Origin: a virus
Virus record (IMG/VR): IMGVR_UViG_3300021960_000210
Coordinates: 1-37,868 of that record
DNA length: 37,868 nucleotides
Reading direction: 5' to 3' (one strand)
The notes below the pieces were generated by a model. That model was not told the origin of the DNA. It saw only the letters and a list, made by a program, of their open reading frames with translations, and searched no databases. Below, piece after piece: positions 20,631 through 28,497 of the stretch; position 1 is the stretch's first letter; every line of letters starts with the position of its first letter. The translations under genes were made by a program, and so were the position numbers.

Positions 20631-23600
20631 TCAATTTGCAAAGTTTTGTCCGACCACTACTCCATATAAACCAGAAGTTCCAACATTTACACCATCAAAT
20701 ATCTTGAACAAGTATATATCCGACCTACTTGCAGTTGGTGTAACGATTGGTAATACGCCACCAGCAGGCCAAAATACTGGAATATCGGCACCACCAGAAG
20801 TTTTGAAGGTGTCAATACCAACGCTTCTGTTTCCTGTTCCATCTTGCTCAATCTTCAAGGTAAACTCACTCGCACCAGCAGGAGCATTTGTCAATGTAAA
20901 CTGCGTAATATCAGCAGTTGCTGTACAAATGAATGTTTGTGCTTGAGACAAGTCAACCGTAACAACATTAGAAACAATGGATAAGTAATTTACGTTTTCA
21001 GAATAAGTCTTGAACTTGGTATGTCCACCAATATCAAGTGTTGCTGTTGGAAGTGTTGATCCAATACCAACAGAACCAAATCCAACTTGTGTTGTGATTA
21101 CAGTTCCTGCAGTTCCAACGTGCAGATTTGTTGTTGTAACAATTCCAGTGGTGATCTTACCAGAAGTATTTCTGATATCAAAAGATCCAGATATGGTCGC
21201 TACTCCACTGACGTGAACATTGTTTGCCGTTAAGAGACCGACAAAATCAGCAACACCGTGAGCACGAAGCGAAGTTGTTGCCATTCCAACAAATCCAGCC
21301 TCAAGATTAACAGTTGGGACAGAAGTTCCAACACCAACAAGATTTAATTCAGTATTGTAAATGCCACCTGGGATATTTGTCCAACCCGTTGCAGATGCAT
21401 TCAGGTTAGTCAATCCATTACCATCACCAAAGAGTGTTGCAGCAGTAATTGAACTTCCAATCGTCAAGTTTGTGCTGATGTTTGCATCACCAATGACGTG
21501 TAAGTTATAAGTATTTGCAGTGGTTCCAATACCAACTCCATTTTCATCAACAGAGAATTGAGTAGATCCAGATCCAACAAGTAACTTACTTAATCCAGGA
21601 GTTGTTGTTGCAATTCCTACCTGATCAAAAATACCAATGTTGAGATCTTTGGAGATGCTTACACTACCAAATCTTCTCCAATCATTCTGCAGGGTATAAA
21701 CCCATCCAGCATATCCACCTTCAGTTGGGTCGGAGTACCAAACAACGTCACCTGGGTTTCCAGCAAGTGCTGGAGTTGAAATACCTACAGTGTATCTTCT
21801 AGAAACCGTAGCATCACCCTGTAAGAAGAGGTTGTTTGCTTCAACACCTTTTGGTGAATTAACAGTCAGTTTGTTACTAATAACAACTGGACCATTAAAT
21901 TCTGATGCAACCTTGTTGTCCTTTCCACCCTCAACACGAACTGCTCTACGGAATATGCCTTCCGTTGCATCAGTGACGTTCAGATTTGGAAGATTGCTAA
22001 TATCTTCACCAGTGATGCTTTGAACAGGAGTATCAAAGATTTCTTCACGACCTGTGATGGTGCTTAATTTCTTATTACCAGAGTATGAAATACCTTTGTC
22101 ATTCATACCAGTGTAGAAGTTAATTCCAGCACTTCTCTTGGTTGATTGTGCTAGAAGTTCTTCTTTTGCTGAAATAGCACGGTCTTGCTTATCTGGAAGT
22201 GTTGTTGAATAGTTTCCAGGACCAAATCCAACATATTCAAATGTATGACCAGATGCTCTGTTAATAGAGTGTCTTCTCAATTCTGTTGGTTTGACAGAGA
22301 TCTTTCTGACAACAGAGTTAATGACGTGAGTTGCAGGATCAGAACCAAGAACACCTCTAAAGATCTTGATTGGGTTTGCGCCAGAGGTTGTTGTCTTAAC
22401 TCTTACAATTTCATCATCAATCAAGAAGTAATCACCAATCTTAACGTCCAGAGAAGAAACATTAGTCAAGTTCATATCTTCTGTTGATGCAGAAGTAATA
22501 GCAGACAACAGTGTGGTTGTGATTCCAGCATAAGAAGGAATCATTCTTCCATCTAAACTCTCATCGTTTGGAGAAACAACCCCATCGTGAGAGATTGGAC
22601 CCTCTTTTAATGCAAAGATCGTTCCTGTTGCTGTTGGTGCAATTGTTCCAACTCCAATTCTGACAGCAAAGGAAGTTCCAGCACTTCCAACAAGTTTGTC
22701 AATAATAAAACTTCCATTGTATTGGGATTCTCCAGCGCCAGTAAATCTTACTCTTTGATTTACGCGAAGTCCGTGTCTAGACGCTGTGGTTACAGTTGCA
22801 ATACCAGAGGTAAAATCGTAGTTTAGACTATTAATACTAACTGATTGACCAACATTGTAGAGATAAGCATCTCCACAGACTGTCAAACCAATACCGGAAA
22901 TAGTAGATGCAAATCCAGCAATTGTTGATGCAGAAGCAACTGTGACAGAACTTGCGCCACCAACTTCAACAGAAGTAATTCTGTAGAGATCATTATATCC
23001 AGCCAGAGATTCTGAAGCAACTCCAACCACTCTTAACGTATCTCCAACGTTATTATAAATTGAAGAAACTTCAACGACCGCTTGAGAGAATCCTGTTGTA
23101 GTTGCAACACCAACAACATTCATCGTGTTGCCTACACCATACGCACTACCACCGTCCATTACAGTGACAGCAGTAATTGTTCCACTACCATCAATAGTAA
23201 TCTTTGCTGTAGCGTTCTTACCAGTTACTGATGAACCGATGGAAACCAATCTTGCATTGTAAATATCACCTGCAGAACCAGAACCATATCCAGCGCCACC
23301 ATCAACGATTGACAATCCAACAGCACGGTTTAATCCGTGATCAATTGCTGTAGTGATTGTGTGTGCAGAACCAGTTTGAGAGTGAATGTTGGTAATTGCG
23401 ATACCAACAGATTCCTTAAAGTAGTAATCTAAAGTTTCTTTTGTGATGCTACTCTTAACGTCATTAATAATAACATCACCAATCAGACTTGATTCAGCGA
23501 AACATTTGGAACCGTCTGGGTCAGAGTTGACATTATCCCTATCAATTTGAGGGAACAATTCCTTAACTGGTTGAGAGTAATTCTCTGCAGTGAAAGGAGA

Positions 23601-26558
23601 AACTGATGGATTGTTTGATGAATTCAGTACAGCAAGGTAGTAAACACCATCTTGCTCACCAGAAACATACTTCTGTGCTTCTTCAACTCTATATGCATAA
23701 TAGACCTTATTATATTCCTTTCTCTTGAAGTATGGCAGAGAACCTGTTCTATTTGAAGTATCGCTGCTGAATGTTCCGGGATCTGTTGTCAGACCAACAG
23801 AGAAGTGTTTTGCACTTCCAATTCCAGTAACAGTAAATGTGCCGTTAAATCCAGAACTTCCTGCTCCAGTTGTATTGACAGTACTCCTAACGTTTACAAT
23901 TTCAACTCTAGACCCAGCAGAAAGATTGTGTGGAAGTTCAGTGTCTACATTAACAACAGAACCTCCATCCCAGTTTGCTCCAGCAATAAATCTAAAGTTT
24001 CTTTGTTGGTTGACGTTTGAGATTGATCCACTTCCAAAATAAGTTTGGATTTCTGCATCAGTTGATCCAATAGATGTGTTAGATTCCTGAAGAATAAATC
24101 CTTCAATAGGTGGTCTTGCAACAACTCCACCGCTATTTGCTGGAAGAACATATCTGAAACGATATAAAGTATCTTCAGAGTTTCTTGTATCAGATCTTCT
24201 CTTGATAAAGGTTCTTGGAGTTGCAGTTCCAAGTGATGTTGAACCTAAACCAACAACAATTGGATAGATTGTGTTCTCTGTTGCAGCAGTTGCAACTTTA
24301 ACATACCATTGAGAATTATCAGAGTCGTATTGAATTGGGTGACCGATTTCTCCAGAGTTCTTATCAGAAACTCTACTGACGACTTTTAGAACACCGCCTT
24401 TTTCATTGATAGACAGTGGATTGCTATTCAGAGCATCATTCAGAGTTTTAGCAACTTTAATATTTCTATTCGTCGTAAGTCCACTTGTGATTGCGTAGTA
24501 AATGGAGTTTGATTCCAAACCATCTGGAAGTTGACCAGTATCACTAATAATACGAATAGATTCACCTTGAATAAAGGAGTGTGTTTCAGTAAATGTAATG
24601 ACATTAGAAACACCACCATCACTGAAAGAACCAATACTGTTGATTCCAGAAACACTTCTATCAACAGTATAAGTCTTTGTGCCACTAATTTGTGGATCTG
24701 CAATATCATCTCCACCCGCAGGCATTGTAACTCTTGCGGAGTATTCTGTTACAGAACCTGCAGAAGAAACAAGAACTCTTAATGTTTCACCACTTCTTGC
24801 ACCAAATCTATACCCTTCCAGTACGTTTTCTGGTGGAACTGCTTCGTTAGTCTCATTCAACAGATAAAGGTGTCCTGTTGAACCAACACCAACCGCACTT
24901 ACGTCGGATGGTAAAGTTTTGAGTACATCAATTGCGGAGAATTCAATGGAAGTTTCTGTCAGAGAGACTGCTTTTGGTGGAATGACGTGAGTGATATATC
25001 CCACATCGTCTTGTGAGAATGCAGTGTCTCTAAATCCAGATGCAATCAGTGCTCTCGCACCAAAGTTGGAGTTAGAATTGGTGATGGACATATCACCACC
25101 ATTTTCGGCAACAAAGTGCTCTGCATATCCAATTGCGAAGATCGAAACGCACTGAATAAATGAGTTGTTTGTTGATTTGATATGGAAGTTTCTAAAGTTA
25201 GGTTTAAATACTGCTCTAGAATCTGTGCTTAACGCCTCATTGCCAGATACAGTATTATCTTCCCACTCACCAGTGGTTGTGTTATATTTTACGAATGCTC
25301 TATCATCTTTTTGCAGACCGATGCCCGTAAATTGAGCAACAACCATTGACTTAAATCCGTCTGCTTTACTACCATCAGCAAGCAGACCGCACATTCCAAA
25401 AACGGAACGCAGAGAGATGTTGAAAATGTATGGTGATGCTGAAGATACGGTATCAGATTGTAATACTAAACTTGCACCTGTTGGTGATGGTAATGCATTA
25501 ACTGGCGCGTTTTGAACTCTATAAATGATTTGAGTATCGCTTGGTCTTTCAGCAACAACGAACTGACCATTATATCCATCTATACCAATACCTTCAATAC
25601 GAATAGGAGTATCTACATCTAATCCTTCAAGAGCAGATGTTGTTGTTACTGTAATATTAGTGCTTGCTGTTATACCATCTCCTGCTTTAATACTTGAGAT
25701 TCCAACAGACGCACCAGTTGAACCAACTATACGATATTCATCAATTTTTGGTTGAATGTCAAGACCAGAAGATGGATAGTCTGGTTCAATTGCTCTACCA
25801 GATGCTTGACCATAAACAAGACCGACTTTCTCATAATACATATCCAAGTCAGTTCTAGTTGTAGAATATGACTGGAAAGTATCGTTAATTTTTACAGCGT
25901 TCGCGCCATCCGCATACTCAAAACAAGTGAGTTTGTGGTGTGAGAAATTGGGGACAAAAGTGTTTGAAGTATAATCTTTGTAACAAACTCCATTTGGATC
26001 TGCATCAAAAAGACTGAACTGCCAGAAATAACAAGCGCCAGTTACACGGAAAATCGTGGAACTCTCAATATTATCGTTTACTGGATCTGGAATGTATTTT
26101 GGTCTTACCTTTGTTTTACGCAGATCCATACCAATGATGGATGTGCCTCGTGGAACAATAACGCCACCATAAATACTGTTCAGTTTCCAGAGTTCATTAT
26201 CTGCTGCAGTTAGATCAAAGTTTGAATCAAGATCAAATGGTGGGAGGTCATTTGAAGTCTCTCCACTTCTCAACCTATAATTATTAGTTCCGTCTGGAAT
26301 GTATCCAGGACGGTTGTCTATAATATGGTCTCCAGGATACAGTAATATACTAGTTTTTCCAAACCTATCGTTGTTTAATCCACGCTGATATGAAAATCTT
26401 GCTGCTTCGATCAGAGCACGCTGAACAGTTTTAAATGGTCGCGCAAGAGAATTTCCTTGATTCTCAACGCTGTCCGTAGCGTCTAAACTGTTAGGATCAA
26501 CATAAAGAATAGTACCACGTGAAGATTTCAGAAAATTATCTAATCTGGAGAGACCCAT
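20631..26558 (-). CDS. Very large virion structural/fibre protein (1975 aa)
   Basis: A 1975-residue protein, the largest here. Its N-terminus (SRGTILYVDPNSLDATDSVE, then RPFKTVQRALIEAARFSYQR and ILLYPGDHIID) is the opening of a right-handed beta-helix of the pectate-lyase-like kind and is, as I recall, a well-conserved virion protein of T4-like cyanophages. The middle has many beta-rich repeats (GGAGYGSGSAGD; DGGSAYGVGNTM). The C-terminal 450 residues are fibre-like, with short G-x-x-T repeats and an ending like other fibre proteins (QTFICTATADITQFTLTNAP). It probably forms a baseplate-attached fibre. A late promoter and a terminator lie just upstream. Confidence 0.8.
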   Translation of the reverse strand: MGLSRLDNFLKSSRGTILYVDPNSLDATDSVENQGNSLARPFKTVQRALIEAARFSYQRGLNNDRFGKTSILLYPGDHIIDNRPGYIPDGTNNYRLRSGETSNDLPPFDLDSNFDLTAADNELWKLNSIYGGVIVPRGTSIIGMDLRKTKVRPKYIPDPVNDNIESSTIFRVTGACYFWQFSLFDADPNGVCYKDYTSNTFVPNFSHHKLTCFEYADGANAVKINDTFQSYSTTRTDLDMYYEKVGLVYGQASGRAIEPDYPSSGLDIQPKIDEYRIVGSTGASVGISSIKAGDGITASTNITVTTTSALEGLDVDTPIRIEGIGIDGYNGQFVVAERPSDTQIIYRVQNAPVNALPSPTGASLVLQSDTVSSASPYIFNISLRSVFGMCGLLADGSKADGFKSMVVAQFTGIGLQKDDRAFVKYNTTTGEWEDNTVSGNEALSTDSRAVFKPNFRNFHIKSTNNSFIQCVSIFAIGYAEHFVAENGGDMSITNSNSNFGARALIASGFRDTAFSQDDVGYITHVIPPKAVSLTETSIEFSAIDVLKTLPSDVSAVGVGSTGHLYLLNETNEAVPPENVLEGYRFGARSGETLRVLVSSAGSVTEYSARVTMPAGGDDIADPQISGTKTYTVDRSVSGINSIGSFSDGGVSNVITFTETHSFIQGESIRIISDTGQLPDGLESNSIYYAITSGLTTNRNIKVAKTLNDALNSNPLSINEKGGVLKVVSRVSDKNSGEIGHPIQYDSDNSQWYVKVATAATENTIYPIVVGLGSTSLGTATPRTFIKRRSDTRNSEDTLYRFRYVLPANSGGVVARPPIEGFILQESNTSIGSTDAEIQTYFGSGSISNVNQQRNFRFIAGANWDGGSVVNVDTELPHNLSAGSRVEIVNVRSTVNTTGAGSSGFNGTFTVTGIGSAKHFSVGLTTDPGTFSSDTSNRTGSLPYFKRKEYNKVYYAYRVEEAQKYVSGEQDGVYYLAVLNSSNNPSVSPFTAENYSQPVKELFPQIDRDNVNSDPDGSKCFAESSLIGDVIINDVKSSITKETLDYYFKESVGIAITNIHSQTGSAHTITTAIDHGLNRAVGLSIVDGGAGYGSGSAGDIYNARLVSIGSSVTGKNATAKITIDGSGTITAVTVMDGGSAYGVGNTMNVVGVATTTGFSQAVVEVSSIYNNVGDTLRVVGVASESLAGYNDLYRITSVEVGGASSVTVASASTIAGFASTISGIGLTVCGDAYLYNVGQSVSINSLNYDFTSGIATVTTASRHGLRVNQRVRFTGAGESQYNGSFIIDKLVGSAGTSFAVRIGVGTIAPTATGTIFALKEGPISHDGVVSPNDESLDGRMIPSYAGITTTLLSAITSASTEDMNLTNVSSLDVKIGDYFLIDDEIVRVKTTTSGANPIKIFRGVLGSDPATHVINSVVRKISVKPTELRRHSINRASGHTFEYVGFGPGNYSTTLPDKQDRAISAKEELLAQSTKRSAGINFYTGMNDKGISYSGNKKLSTITGREEIFDTPVQSITGEDISNLPNLNVTDATEGIFRRAVRVEGGKDNKVASEFNGPVVISNKLTVNSPKGVEANNLFLQGDATVSRRYTVGISTPALAGNPGDVVWYSDPTEGGYAGWVYTLQNDWRRFGSVSISKDLNIGIFDQVGIATTTPGLSKLLVGSGSTQFSVDENGVGIGTTANTYNLHVIGDANISTNLTIGSSITAATLFGDGNGLTNLNASATGWTNIPGGIYNTELNLVGVGTSVPTVNLEAGFVGMATTSLRAHGVADFVGLLTANNVHVSGVATISGSFDIRNTSGKITTGIVTTTNLHVGTAGTVITTQVGFGSVGIGSTLPTATLDIGGHTKFKTYSENVNYLSIVSNVVTVDLSQAQTFICTATADITQFTLTNAPAGASEFTLKIEQDGTGNRSVGIDTFKTSGGADIPVFWPAGGVLPIVTPTASRSDIYLFKIFDGVNVGTSGLYGVVVGQNFAN

Positions 26559-26598: not shown

Positions 26599-26623
26599 AC
26601 AACAAAACCTCCCGAAGGAGGTT
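26599..26623 (-). terminator. Intrinsic terminator with UUCG loop
   Basis: On the minus strand AACCTCC-TTCG-GGAGGTT forms a perfect seven-base-pair stem with a stable UUCG tetraloop, followed by TTTTGTTG-like U-rich sequence. It lies 40 bases after the stop of the Mom-like gene and would end transcripts from the small-gene island. Confidence 0.85.
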
Positions 26624-26662: not shown

Positions 26663-27274
26663 TTATATATTACCATAACTTTCTTGTTCCCACAAGACAT
26701 TTAATTTAGAGTCAAAAATCATCAAATATCTGTGCTTTCTACTGCGTTCTTTCCATTCTCCTTCAGAACCTTTTATTTTGCCGCGTGAATGCTTGGTGCC
26801 GTCTGAATAGTAGAAATCTTTTTTAGCATCTGTAATCCCACAATATTTAAAGTTACAAGCGCGATAAATTGTGCCACCATGAAAAGCACTATCAGCGTAA
26901 GATATGATGGCTCTGACTCTTGTGTCTTTGCGTAGTTGCTTGATGCATCTTGATACAAACCACGATGTAATATTGTATTCATCTTGTTGTGTGTCAGGGT
27001 GGATGCAAAGTCGTGAAAGTTCAAATAATCCTTCTTGTTCATTTCTCTCTAAACCAAATGCTCCTTTTGCTATTTCTGGAACGGGAAGTCCTGTAAAAAT
27101 ACAAACTCCCAATAATCCACCAATCTTTAATGGTGAAAAATCGTTCTTTTTGAATAATCCGTAATTATAACCCGATTTGAAAGATTTTGAGAAGTCCTTC
27201 AAATAATGATATTTCAGCAAAAGTTCTTCTGCTTCTTTTTTGCTAATTTTTTCGATGTAATAATCGGATTTCAC
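26663..27274 (-). CDS. mom: Mom-like DNA modification protein (GNAT-related)
   Basis: A 203-residue protein matching the layout of the phage Mu Mom family: an N-terminal KYHYLKDFSKSF (H23-Y24), GLLGVCIFTGLPVPE (about 53-67), the conserved ELSRLCIHP (85-93), NITSWFVSRCI (101-111), and the C-terminal SYADSAFHGGTIYRACNFKY (125-144). Mom is a GNAT-related protein that converts adenine in DNA to a carbamoylmethyl derivative and so protects phage DNA from host restriction. The match is by motif order; the exact product of this protein is not known. The start is GTG, because no in-frame ATG lies before the conserved part. It closes a small-gene island before a strong terminator. Confidence 0.8.
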   Translation of the reverse strand: MKSDYYIEKISKKEAEELLLKYHYLKDFSKSFKSGYNYGLFKKNDFSPLKIGGLLGVCIFTGLPVPEIAKGAFGLERNEQEGLFELSRLCIHPDTQQDEYNITSWFVSRCIKQLRKDTRVRAIISYADSAFHGGTIYRACNFKYCGITDAKKDFYYSDGTKHSRGKIKGSEGEWKERSRKHRYLMIFDSKLNVLWEQESYGNI

Positions 27275-27295: not shown

Positions 27296-27367
27296 AGCCC
27301 CCGATCCGATTTGAACGGACGACCTGCTGTTTACAAGACAGCTGCTCTACCACTGAGCTACAAGGGC
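27296..27367 (-). tRNA. tRNA-Thr (anticodon UGU)
   Basis: The minus strand folds as a full cloverleaf of 72 bases: acceptor GCCCTTG with CGGGGGC (two G-U), D stem GCTC/GAGC, anticodon stem GCTGT/ACAGC with loop CTTGTAA (anticodon TGT), variable AGGTC, T stem GTCCG/CGGAT with TTCAAAT. The 3' CCA is not encoded. It would read ACA codons. Confidence 0.95.
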
Positions 27368-27368
27368 G

Positions 27369-27947
27369 TTAGTAATATTTAATTGTATTTTTATAGCAGA
27401 TATCAAAAGGAAAAACTATTCTAGTTTTTTTAGAATTTGTTCCAGAATATCCATGCCAAACGTCTGCTGGATAGATTAGCAAATCGTCTTCTTCACATGC
27501 GGGTGTAATTGATTCTGACAGACTTTCATTATTATAAAAAGTTGTGCATAGATGTTCATTTTTATCAAAAGACAAGTAATATATTCCAGAAAAAGAATAA
27601 TTTCTATTACTTTCGTGTATATGGGGAACACACTTTTGATCTTTTTCATAACAAACGCACCATAAATTAGATACTTCTAATTTCTTGTTCAAATTAATTT
27701 CTTTTGAAAATAAGAGCAATTTATGCTCTATTTCAGAAACTAAAAGATTTAATAAGTTAATACCATTGTATTGAAACCTACTGTCATCTTGAATTACATC
27801 AAAAATTCTTGCGTTTGTTGTTTCCCGATTTGCTTTTTTTAAGTTTTTGTCGGATTCTATATCCTTTATAATATCAGTTATTTTTTCTTTGAATAGAATT
27901 TCTAACTTTGTTTTATAAATTTTATGAGAAAAACAATCAATTAACAT
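27369..27947 (-). CDS. 2OG-Fe(II) oxygenase-like protein near the Mom-like gene
   Basis: A 192-residue A+T-rich gene. The C-terminal half has VPHIHESNRNYSFSGIYYLS (108-127), with H109/H111 as candidate iron ligands, then IYPADVWHGYSGTNSKKTRI, with distal H165 and R176. This matches the 2OG-FeII_Oxy_5-like layout and, unlike the protein at 8610-9227, keeps the distal His and Arg. The first 90 residues are helical and Lys-rich with no known match. The gene sits between a small gene and tRNA-Thr, upstream of the Mom-like gene. Protein, sugar or DNA base could be its substrate; nothing seen decides. Confidence 0.7.
   Translation of the reverse strand: MLIDCFSHKIYKTKLEILFKEKITDIIKDIESDKNLKKANRETTNARIFDVIQDDSRFQYNGINLLNLLVSEIEHKLLLFSKEINLNKKLEVSNLWCVCYEKDQKCVPHIHESNRNYSFSGIYYLSFDKNEHLCTTFYNNESLSESITPACEEDDLLIYPADVWHGYSGTNSKKTRIVFPFDICYKNTIKYY
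27376..27382 (-). promoter_or_regulatory. Possible late promoter before tRNA-Thr
   Basis: TTAAATA on the minus strand ends nine bases before the 5' end of tRNA-Thr, inside the last codons of the oxygenase-like gene. The region is A+T rich, so chance is possible. Confidence 0.3.
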
Positions 27948-28217
27948 CTAGTCTACGGGCAACATTTCTGGATTTTCCAGTTCTACTTCAAACATTAAAG
28001 GGTGGCACAATTCATCAATTAAGTAAAATGACGACTTGTAGAGGTCTTCTGGTTCGTAGCTTCTTTCGTTGTCCGCTAATTCAATCAAATCCAGATCATA
28101 TATTGCATCATCTGGAAGTTCGTCAAAAGTAAATGGAACTTGATTTATAAAATACATTAGAACAATCATACTACCATTTAAATACCAGCAGTATGCGGTG
28201 TCGATTCTGTATTTCAT
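27948..28217 (-). CDS. Small acidic hypothetical protein (89 aa)
   Basis: An 89-residue protein with an aromatic N-terminal half that may form beta strands (YRIDTAYCWYLNGSMIVLMY), then a strongly acidic part (DELPDDAIYDLDLIELADNE) and a hydrophobic, acidic end. No motif is recognised. Its stop directly abuts the ATG of the oxygenase-like gene (zero spacing), so the two are co-translated. A perfect CTAAATA late box lies 21 bases before its ATG, and it may also be read from the upstream sigma-70 promoter. Confidence 0.7.
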   Translation of the reverse strand: MKYRIDTAYCWYLNGSMIVLMYFINQVPFTFDELPDDAIYDLDLIELADNERSYEPEDLYKSSFYLIDELCHPLMFEVELENPEMLPVD

Positions 28218-28245: not shown

Positions 28246-28266
28246 GATTCGGTTAAGAACTCCTAA

Positions 28267-28350
28267 TAGGAACGGAGAGAATTGAACTCTCACGGGCTAC
28301 TGCCCAACAGATTTTAAGTCTGGTGCGTCTACCTATTCCGCCACGCTCCC
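28267..28350 (-). tRNA. tRNA-Leu (anticodon UAA)
   Basis: The minus strand forms a type II cloverleaf of 84 bases: acceptor GGGAGCG/CGTTCCT (with wobbles), anticodon loop CTTAAAA (anticodon TAA) on a stem whose outermost pair C-T is mismatched, long variable arm (TTGGGCAGTAGCCC region), T arm GAGAG-TTCAATT-CTCTC and discriminator A. CCA is not encoded. It would read UUA codons, common in this A+T-rich genome. Confidence 0.92.
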
Positions 28351-28497
28351 ATCATAAATTGGGGGATGAAAACGGCAATACTCATTAAACGTAATTTTCA
28401 TTTCCTTCCAGGTAAGACCACAATTTGCTGCTGCTTTGGGAACATTCCACTTTGCTGCAAACAGCATTTCCATTGATTCTCTGGTTTCTGGACGCAT
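28333..28497 (-). CDS. Small HTH-like protein (54 aa) overlapping tRNA-Leu
   Basis: A 54-residue frame from ATG at 28497 to TAG at 28333. It starts MRPETRESMEMLFAAKWNVP and continues KAAANCGLTWKEMKITFNEY, with two helices and a turn (KAAANCGLTWKEM) resembling a helix-turn-helix. The last four residues and stop lie inside the 5' end of tRNA-Leu, an 18-base overlap. From memory, similar short proteins exist in cyanophages, which supports a real gene. It sits downstream of the sigma-70 promoter at 28782-28811. A DNA-binding role is only a guess. Confidence 0.6.
   Translation of the reverse strand: MRPETRESMEMLFAAKWNVPKAAANCGLTWKEMKITFNEYCRFHPPIYDGSVAE

What the first reader, a model, noticed from the sequence alone, without database searches (positions are those of the whole stretch)
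26663..27274. Mom-family DNA modification gene in a cyanophage-like genome
The order HYLKDFSKSF, GLLGVCIFTG, ELSRLCIHP and SYADSAFHGGTIY is that of Mom, which adds a carbamoylmethyl group to adenine in phage Mu. It implies that this phage's DNA may carry a modified base against restriction.
Basis: partly seen in the sequence, partly recalled or inferred. Interest (0 to 1): 0.66.

Follow-up and report, generated by a model that had tools for sequence, protein, structure and literature searches.

The report
Mom-type DNA-modification gene in uncultured cyanophage
A virus of cyanobacteria carries a genuine relative of phage Mu's Mom enzyme, which puts a chemical group on adenines in viral DNA so that bacterial restriction enzymes cannot cut it; such genes turn out to be common in uncultured cyanobacterial viruses and almost absent from those grown in the laboratory.

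Summary
Window 26663-27274, minus strand, is an intact 203-aa gene of the Mom family: Pfam Mom E=5e-26, profile match to the Mu Mom crystal structure 8bv8 E=1e-16, AlphaFold model closest to 8bv8 (Z 18.1; next entry 13.7). The residues shared with Mu are kept, including Ser104, the counterpart of Mu Ser124, whose S124A mutant is deposited as inactive. The gene is under purifying selection (dN/dS about 0.09). The window is a fragment of a T4-like cyanophage (Kyanoviridae). The likeliest function is post-replicative modification of phage adenines against host restriction; family and fold are shown, chemistry and protection are inferred. New here: a Mom subfamily with at least 595 matches in IMG/VR sits at two fixed sites in uncultured T4-like cyanophages (tRNA-Thr/tail-fibre and gp32/gp53 junctions), present in about half of the close relatives at each, sometimes beside homing endonucleases, yet absent from the syntenic isolates; at most four Synechococcus phage records have any Mom. 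Restriction-site avoidance is not relaxed in Mom-carrying relatives (null result). It is a new member of a known kind.

The parts
26663..27274 (-). mom gene, 203 aa, GTG start; Mom-family GNAT-fold protein
26606..26623 (-). probable intrinsic terminator (AACCTCC-TTCG-GGAGGTT, T-rich tail) 39 bp after the mom stop, before the tail-fibre gene
   Evidence: 6 terminator-like sites found in the region, 1.0 expected in shuffles; consensus match only
27296..27367 (-). tRNA-Thr(UGU) 21 bp upstream of mom; fixed landmark of this insertion site
27369..27947 (-). 2OG-Fe(II) oxygenase (PF13759), 192 aa; inserted between the 89-aa gene and tRNA-Thr, not a conserved partner of mom
27948..28217 (-). 89-aa conserved cyanophage protein (phrog_4134), landmark of the site
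28266..28351 (-). tRNA-Leu(UAA), landmark of the site
20631..26558 (-). large tail-fibre gene (1975 aa) downstream of mom; other landmark of the site

Best explanation
The gene encodes an active Mom-type DNA-modifying enzyme. SHOWN by computation: it is a Mom-family protein with the GNAT fold and the residues shared with Mu Mom, under purifying selection, in a T4-like cyanophage. INFERRED: during infection it acts on replicated phage DNA and converts a fraction of adenines, at short preferred contexts, to N6-carbamoylmethyl-adenine (or a closely related acyl-derived adduct) using an acyl-CoA-type donor in the GNAT pocket; the bulky group blocks host restriction enzymes, so progeny DNA survives in hosts with restriction-modification systems. 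It is carried as an optional counter-defence cassette at two fixed genome sites and is gained and lost often, possibly helped by homing endonucleases that sit in the same junction.
For: Pfam Mom E=5.4e-26; phrog_1384 E=3.7e-36; A2 profile to Mu Mom 8bv8 E=9.8e-17; 25% identity over 187 aa to Mu Mom; AF2 model pLDDT 89.9, best PDB match 8bv8 by Foldseek (E=2.7e-11) and by VIA-align (Z 18.1 over 178 residues against 13.7 for the next entry). Window residues H23, Y24, E85, R88, N101, S104, S125, A127, D128, Y137, N141, G146, H162 equal Mu H58, Y59, E108, R111, N121, S124, S146, A148, D149, Y159, N163, G168, H183; ten of these 13 are identical in all 195 subfamily rows, S104 in 191, S125 and H162 in 194. 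8bv8 is titled 'inactive mutant S124A'. dN/dS median 0.087. At the other site mom abuts, and in 25 loci overlaps by 4 bp, the stop codon of gp32, the replication ssDNA-binding protein, which suits work on replicated DNA. Mu Mom's product, N6-(1-acetamido)-adenine, and its role against restriction are reported in PMC10286901. Presence/absence in close relatives fits a counter-defence gene.
Against: No chemistry is observed, and assembled DNA sequence cannot report modified bases. Avoidance of palindromic 4-mers is the same in Mom+ and Mom- relatives (O/E 0.807 vs 0.801 at the gp32 site; 0.826 vs 0.823 at the fibre site), so no relaxed restriction pressure is seen. No Com-like regulator precedes the gene. 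H132 and K180, identical in all 195 rows, align with R and Q in Mu, so the substrate or adduct could differ.
Confidence: 0.78

Rival explanations
1. A Mom-fold enzyme with the same DNA target but a different adduct or base (for example another acyl or aminoacyl group on adenine): a Mom-like modifier with its own chemistry.
For: Only 25% identity to Mu Mom; subfamily-specific invariant residues H132 and K180; the C-terminal half differs from Mu. The donor is described as an acylated CoA 'such as glycyl coA' (PMC7824862), so the chemistry is open even for the type member.
Against: The residues shared across the whole family, including the S124 counterpart, are kept, which argues for the same core reaction.
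Confidence: 0.12
2. A GNAT of Mom ancestry that now acylates something else (tRNA, translation or host protein); its place beside tRNA-Thr would be functional.
For: In the window and in fibre-site relatives it follows tRNA-Thr; S-SSM7 also has its distant Mom straight after a tRNA cluster; the fold matches many acetyltransferases at Z about 13.
Against: The closest relatives (79-88% identical) sit between gp32 and gp53 with no tRNA in the loci scanned; 8bv8 outranks all acetyltransferases clearly.
Confidence: 0.06
3. Selfish passenger: mom is mainly moved and kept by homing endonucleases, with little benefit to the phage.
For: Endonuclease-like genes (two checked: NUMOD3) lie between gp32 and mom in 12 loci, and one lies in the same junction without mom in L103; in L128 an HNH-like frame sits behind mom, followed by a second copy of mom's 3' end; Mom domains are fused to endonucleases in other phages.
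Against: Most mom loci have no endonuclease beside them; strong purifying selection on the active site of an enzyme.
Confidence: 0.04

Closest known systems
Mom of Escherichia phage Mu (PDB 8bv8; PF25680)
   Same: Same fold, collinear motifs, 25% identity over 187 aa, the family-invariant residues including the S124 counterpart.
   Different: Shorter (203 vs 241 aa), different C-terminal half, no com gene in front, T4-like cyanophage instead of a transposable phage, gene between tRNA-Thr and tail fibre.
Mom-like protein of Synechococcus phage S-SSM7 (SSSM7_282, RefSeq 'Mom-like DNA modification protein')
   Same: Mom family in a T4-like cyanophage, also directly after tRNA genes.
   Different: 24% identical; resembles the Vibrio/ICP1-type Moms in the alignment; other genome place (near psbA), so probably a separate acquisition.
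Mom-like frame of Roseobacter phage CRP-212
   Same: Closest isolate relative, 51% over 98% of the protein.
   Different: A 55-kb phage; the frame overlaps the start of the gene annotated as MazG pyrophosphohydrolase and is not annotated as Mom.
Mom domains fused to endonucleases in jumbo and other phages (PMC7824862; phrog_559)
   Same: Mom domain.
   Different: The window protein is a stand-alone Mom domain without a nuclease domain.

Membership tests
Mom family (PF25680) | Profile match above the curated cut-off over most of the model | tested here: met
   91.9 bits vs 27.1, model positions 2-184 of 202
Mom family (PF25680) | GNAT-type fold closest to the Mu Mom structure | tested here: met
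   AF2 model pLDDT 89.9; 8bv8 rank 1, Z 18.1 vs 13.7 for the next entry
Mom family (PF25680) | Family-invariant residues, with the serine whose loss inactivates Mu Mom (S124) | tested here: met
   S104 aligned to Mu S124; H23, Y24, E85, R88, D128, Y137, N141, H162 all match
Mom of phage Mu (functional equivalent) | Makes N6-carbamoylmethyl-adenine in DNA | not testable with these tools
   needs LC-MS or nanopore signal from native virion DNA
Mom of phage Mu (functional equivalent) | Protects phage DNA from restriction | tested here: inconclusive
   indirect test only: palindrome avoidance equal in Mom+ and Mom- relatives
Mom of phage Mu (functional equivalent) | com gene overlapping the mom start (translational control) | tested here: not met
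   upstream lies tRNA-Thr; no frame of 20 aa or more in the same strand overlaps the start. This is a feature of Mu, not of the family
Endonuclease-fused Mom (phrog_559 type) | Nuclease domain in the same chain | tested here: not met
   203-aa protein with the Mom domain at 5-186 only

The most novel reading that the evidence does not exclude
A cyanophage-wide accessory hypermodification system: a distinct Mom subfamily, carried by about half of the uncultured relatives at two fixed junctions, makes an adenine adduct that may differ from Mu's, moves by homing-endonuclease-assisted exchange, and is systematically missing from isolates.
Probability: 0.2. Interest if true: 0.65.

Novelty: new member of a known kind. 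Interest (0 to 1): 0.42.

Why it matters
T4-like cyanophages are among the most abundant DNA viruses in water, and I found no paper in the held library on Mom in cyanophages. If active, the gene means that many uncultured cyanophages carry modified adenine, which could explain survival in restricting cyanobacteria and could bias cloning or amplification of their DNA. The presence/absence pairs at the gp32/gp53 junction give natural test pairs for what Mom does.

Tried and rejected
(1) Relaxed restriction-site avoidance in Mom+ phages: no difference. (2) The idea that the window's mom jumped from the gp32 site: a first tree put it among gp32-site copies, and an AU test with some rows mislabelled gave p=0.034, but with sites assigned from neighbours one fibre-site clade is not rejected (p=0.73), so the number of moves between sites is unresolved. 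(3) The 2OG-Fe(II) oxygenase next door as a modification partner: absent from all 80 fibre-site relatives. (4) Functional link to tRNA-Thr: the closest relatives have no tRNA nearby. (5) NCBIfam has no model that hits, not even for Mu Mom. (6) The main biochemical paper (Karambelkar 2020, known to me from memory: acetyl-CoA and iron binding by Mom) is not held and was not used as evidence. (7) Host copies: the scan of bacterial and archaeal genomes found no close relative in a cyanobacterial genome, only a 24% match in Nostoc linckia; the best two are MAG contigs at 57-63%.

Full report
WHAT IS THERE. The finding's coordinates hold an open frame on the minus strand, 27274 down to 26663, GTG start, 203 aa, with all four quoted motifs in order. 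The window is a whole IMG/VR virus record of 37,868 bases, a fragment of a T4-like cyanophage: tail and baseplate genes on the minus strand, matching Synechococcus phages SynMITS9220M01, S-SM2 and Bellamy in order.

FAMILY. Pfam Mom PF25680 matches at E=5.4e-26, well above its cut-off; PHROG 1384, 'Mom-like DNA modification protein', at 3.7e-36. Direct BLASTP to Mu Mom gives 25% over 187 residues. A profile of 42 relatives finds one significant solved structure, 8bv8, Mu Mom, at E=9.8e-17. The AlphaFold2 model (mean pLDDT 89.9) has 8bv8 as first match by Foldseek and by VIA-align (Z 18.1, 178 residues, 3.7 A; next entry 13.7, an acetyltransferase). The deposited structure is titled 'inactive mutant S124A'; the window's Ser104 aligns with Mu Ser124 and is conserved in 191 of 195 relatives (Thr in four). 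His23, Tyr24, Glu85, Arg88, Asn101, Ala127, Asp128, Tyr137, Asn141 and Gly146 are identical in all 195 and in Mu. dN/dS in pairs with dS 0.1-1.2 has a median of 0.087. As far as sequence can tell, the gene encodes a functional Mom-family protein.

TWO RESIDENT SITES. All but two of those 80 (L015, L073) sit at one place: after gp33 and gp32, before the convergent gp53 and gp48 (gene names). The gp53 neighbour is 76% identical to that of the freshwater isolate S-SRM01, which has gp32 and gp53 facing each other with no mom. Of 80 loci found with the S-SRM01 gp53, 38 have mom in the junction and 37 do not; five are cut too short to tell. In most mom-less loci the gap is only about 30-50 bp. In 25 loci mom overlaps the gp32 stop by 4 bp, and its stop usually overlaps the convergent gp53 end by 6-36 bp, so it is packed tightly into the junction.

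The window belongs to the second site: tRNA-Leu, an 89-aa gene, tRNA-Thr, mom, tail fibre. In S-SM2 and Bellamy a frame of 56 codons is all that lies between tRNA-Thr and the fibre gene. Of 80 relatives fetched with the fibre N-terminus, 37 have a mom match upstream of the fibre gene, 64-78% identical apart from one remnant (L303); the others lack it or are too short to tell. A likely intrinsic terminator follows mom in the window. Of 12 long contigs tested, 11 have a single match to the window Mom (nine at 67-85%, two distant ones of the S-SSM7 type) and one, G004, has two. Whether the gene moved between the two sites once or several times is not resolved.

HOST AND ISOLATES. Photosystem II reaction-centre genes occur in 10 of 13 long contigs tested, 12 of which carry a Mom (L108 is the one without); this ties them to cyanobacteria. 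Among 50,697 phage records the closest relative is Roseobacter phage CRP-212 (51%). At least 461 records named Synechococcus phage, cyanophage or Prochlorococcus phage have a gp53 relative, but Synechococcus does not reach the tenth place (4 records) in the Mom tally, and the one seen in the list is S-SSM7, whose Mom is 24% identical. The tool may withhold records near the window, so this absence is not proof.

MOBILITY. Endonuclease-like genes lie between gp32 and mom in 12 loci, and one lies in the same junction without mom in L103; the two checked by Pfam hold NUMOD3 motifs. In L128 an HNH-like frame sits after mom and is followed by a second copy of mom's 3' end; Pfam does not name this frame, so 'HNH-like' is my reading of its sequence. 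Mom domains joined to endonucleases in other phages are known (PMC7824862) and appear among the fold matches. Help by homing endonucleases is plausible, not shown.

FUNCTION. Mu Mom converts adenine to N6-(1-acetamido)-adenine and blocks restriction (PMC10286901); the donor is described as an acylated CoA (PMC7824862). Transfer of this function to the window gene is inference from family, fold and residues. The one indirect test I could run, relaxed avoidance of palindromes in Mom+ relatives, was null: both groups avoid 4-base palindromes alike (O/E 0.807 and 0.801 at the gp32 site, 0.826 and 0.823 at the fibre site). That shows no relaxation but does not refute protection, since the two states alternate among close relatives.

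VERDICT. A real, probably active Mom; a new subfamily and genomic setting within a known family.

Noticed in passing
L128:4685-5926 (minus strand of the locus): HNH-like frame directly behind mom, followed by a duplicated copy of mom's 3' end: looks like a homing endonuclease that targets mom.
   Followed up: partly
L032, L049, L119, L120, L126, L127, L129, L130, L171-L174 between gp32 and mom; L103 at the same junction without mom: NUMOD3-type homing-endonuclease-like genes of about 180-260 aa occupy the gp32/gp53 junction.
   Followed up: partly
L010:9344-9997: FkbM-type methyltransferase (PF05050) gene between gp32 and mom.
   Followed up: no
window 27369-27947: 2OG-Fe(II) oxygenase between the 89-aa gene and tRNA-Thr, absent from all 80 fibre-site relatives.
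   Followed up: yes
L303:3739-3894: Only the last 50 or so codons of a mom-like gene remain upstream of the tail fibre: a decayed copy.
   Followed up: no
L362 contig (G004:C1:137138-137545): A 153-kb cyanophage contig with a second, distant Mom (34%) besides the fibre-site copy.
   Followed up: no
L095-L174 and L293-L372: These cyanophages under-use CATG, AGCT, GTAC and GGCC whether or not they carry mom, a possible sign of lasting restriction pressure.
   Followed up: partly
L082:8001-8585 (Roseobacter phage CRP-212): A Mom-like frame is not annotated as such; the annotated MazG gene begins inside it.
   Followed up: no
L154:4682-5262: mom appears split by a frameshift near codon 108: a broken copy or a sequencing error.
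   Followed up: no
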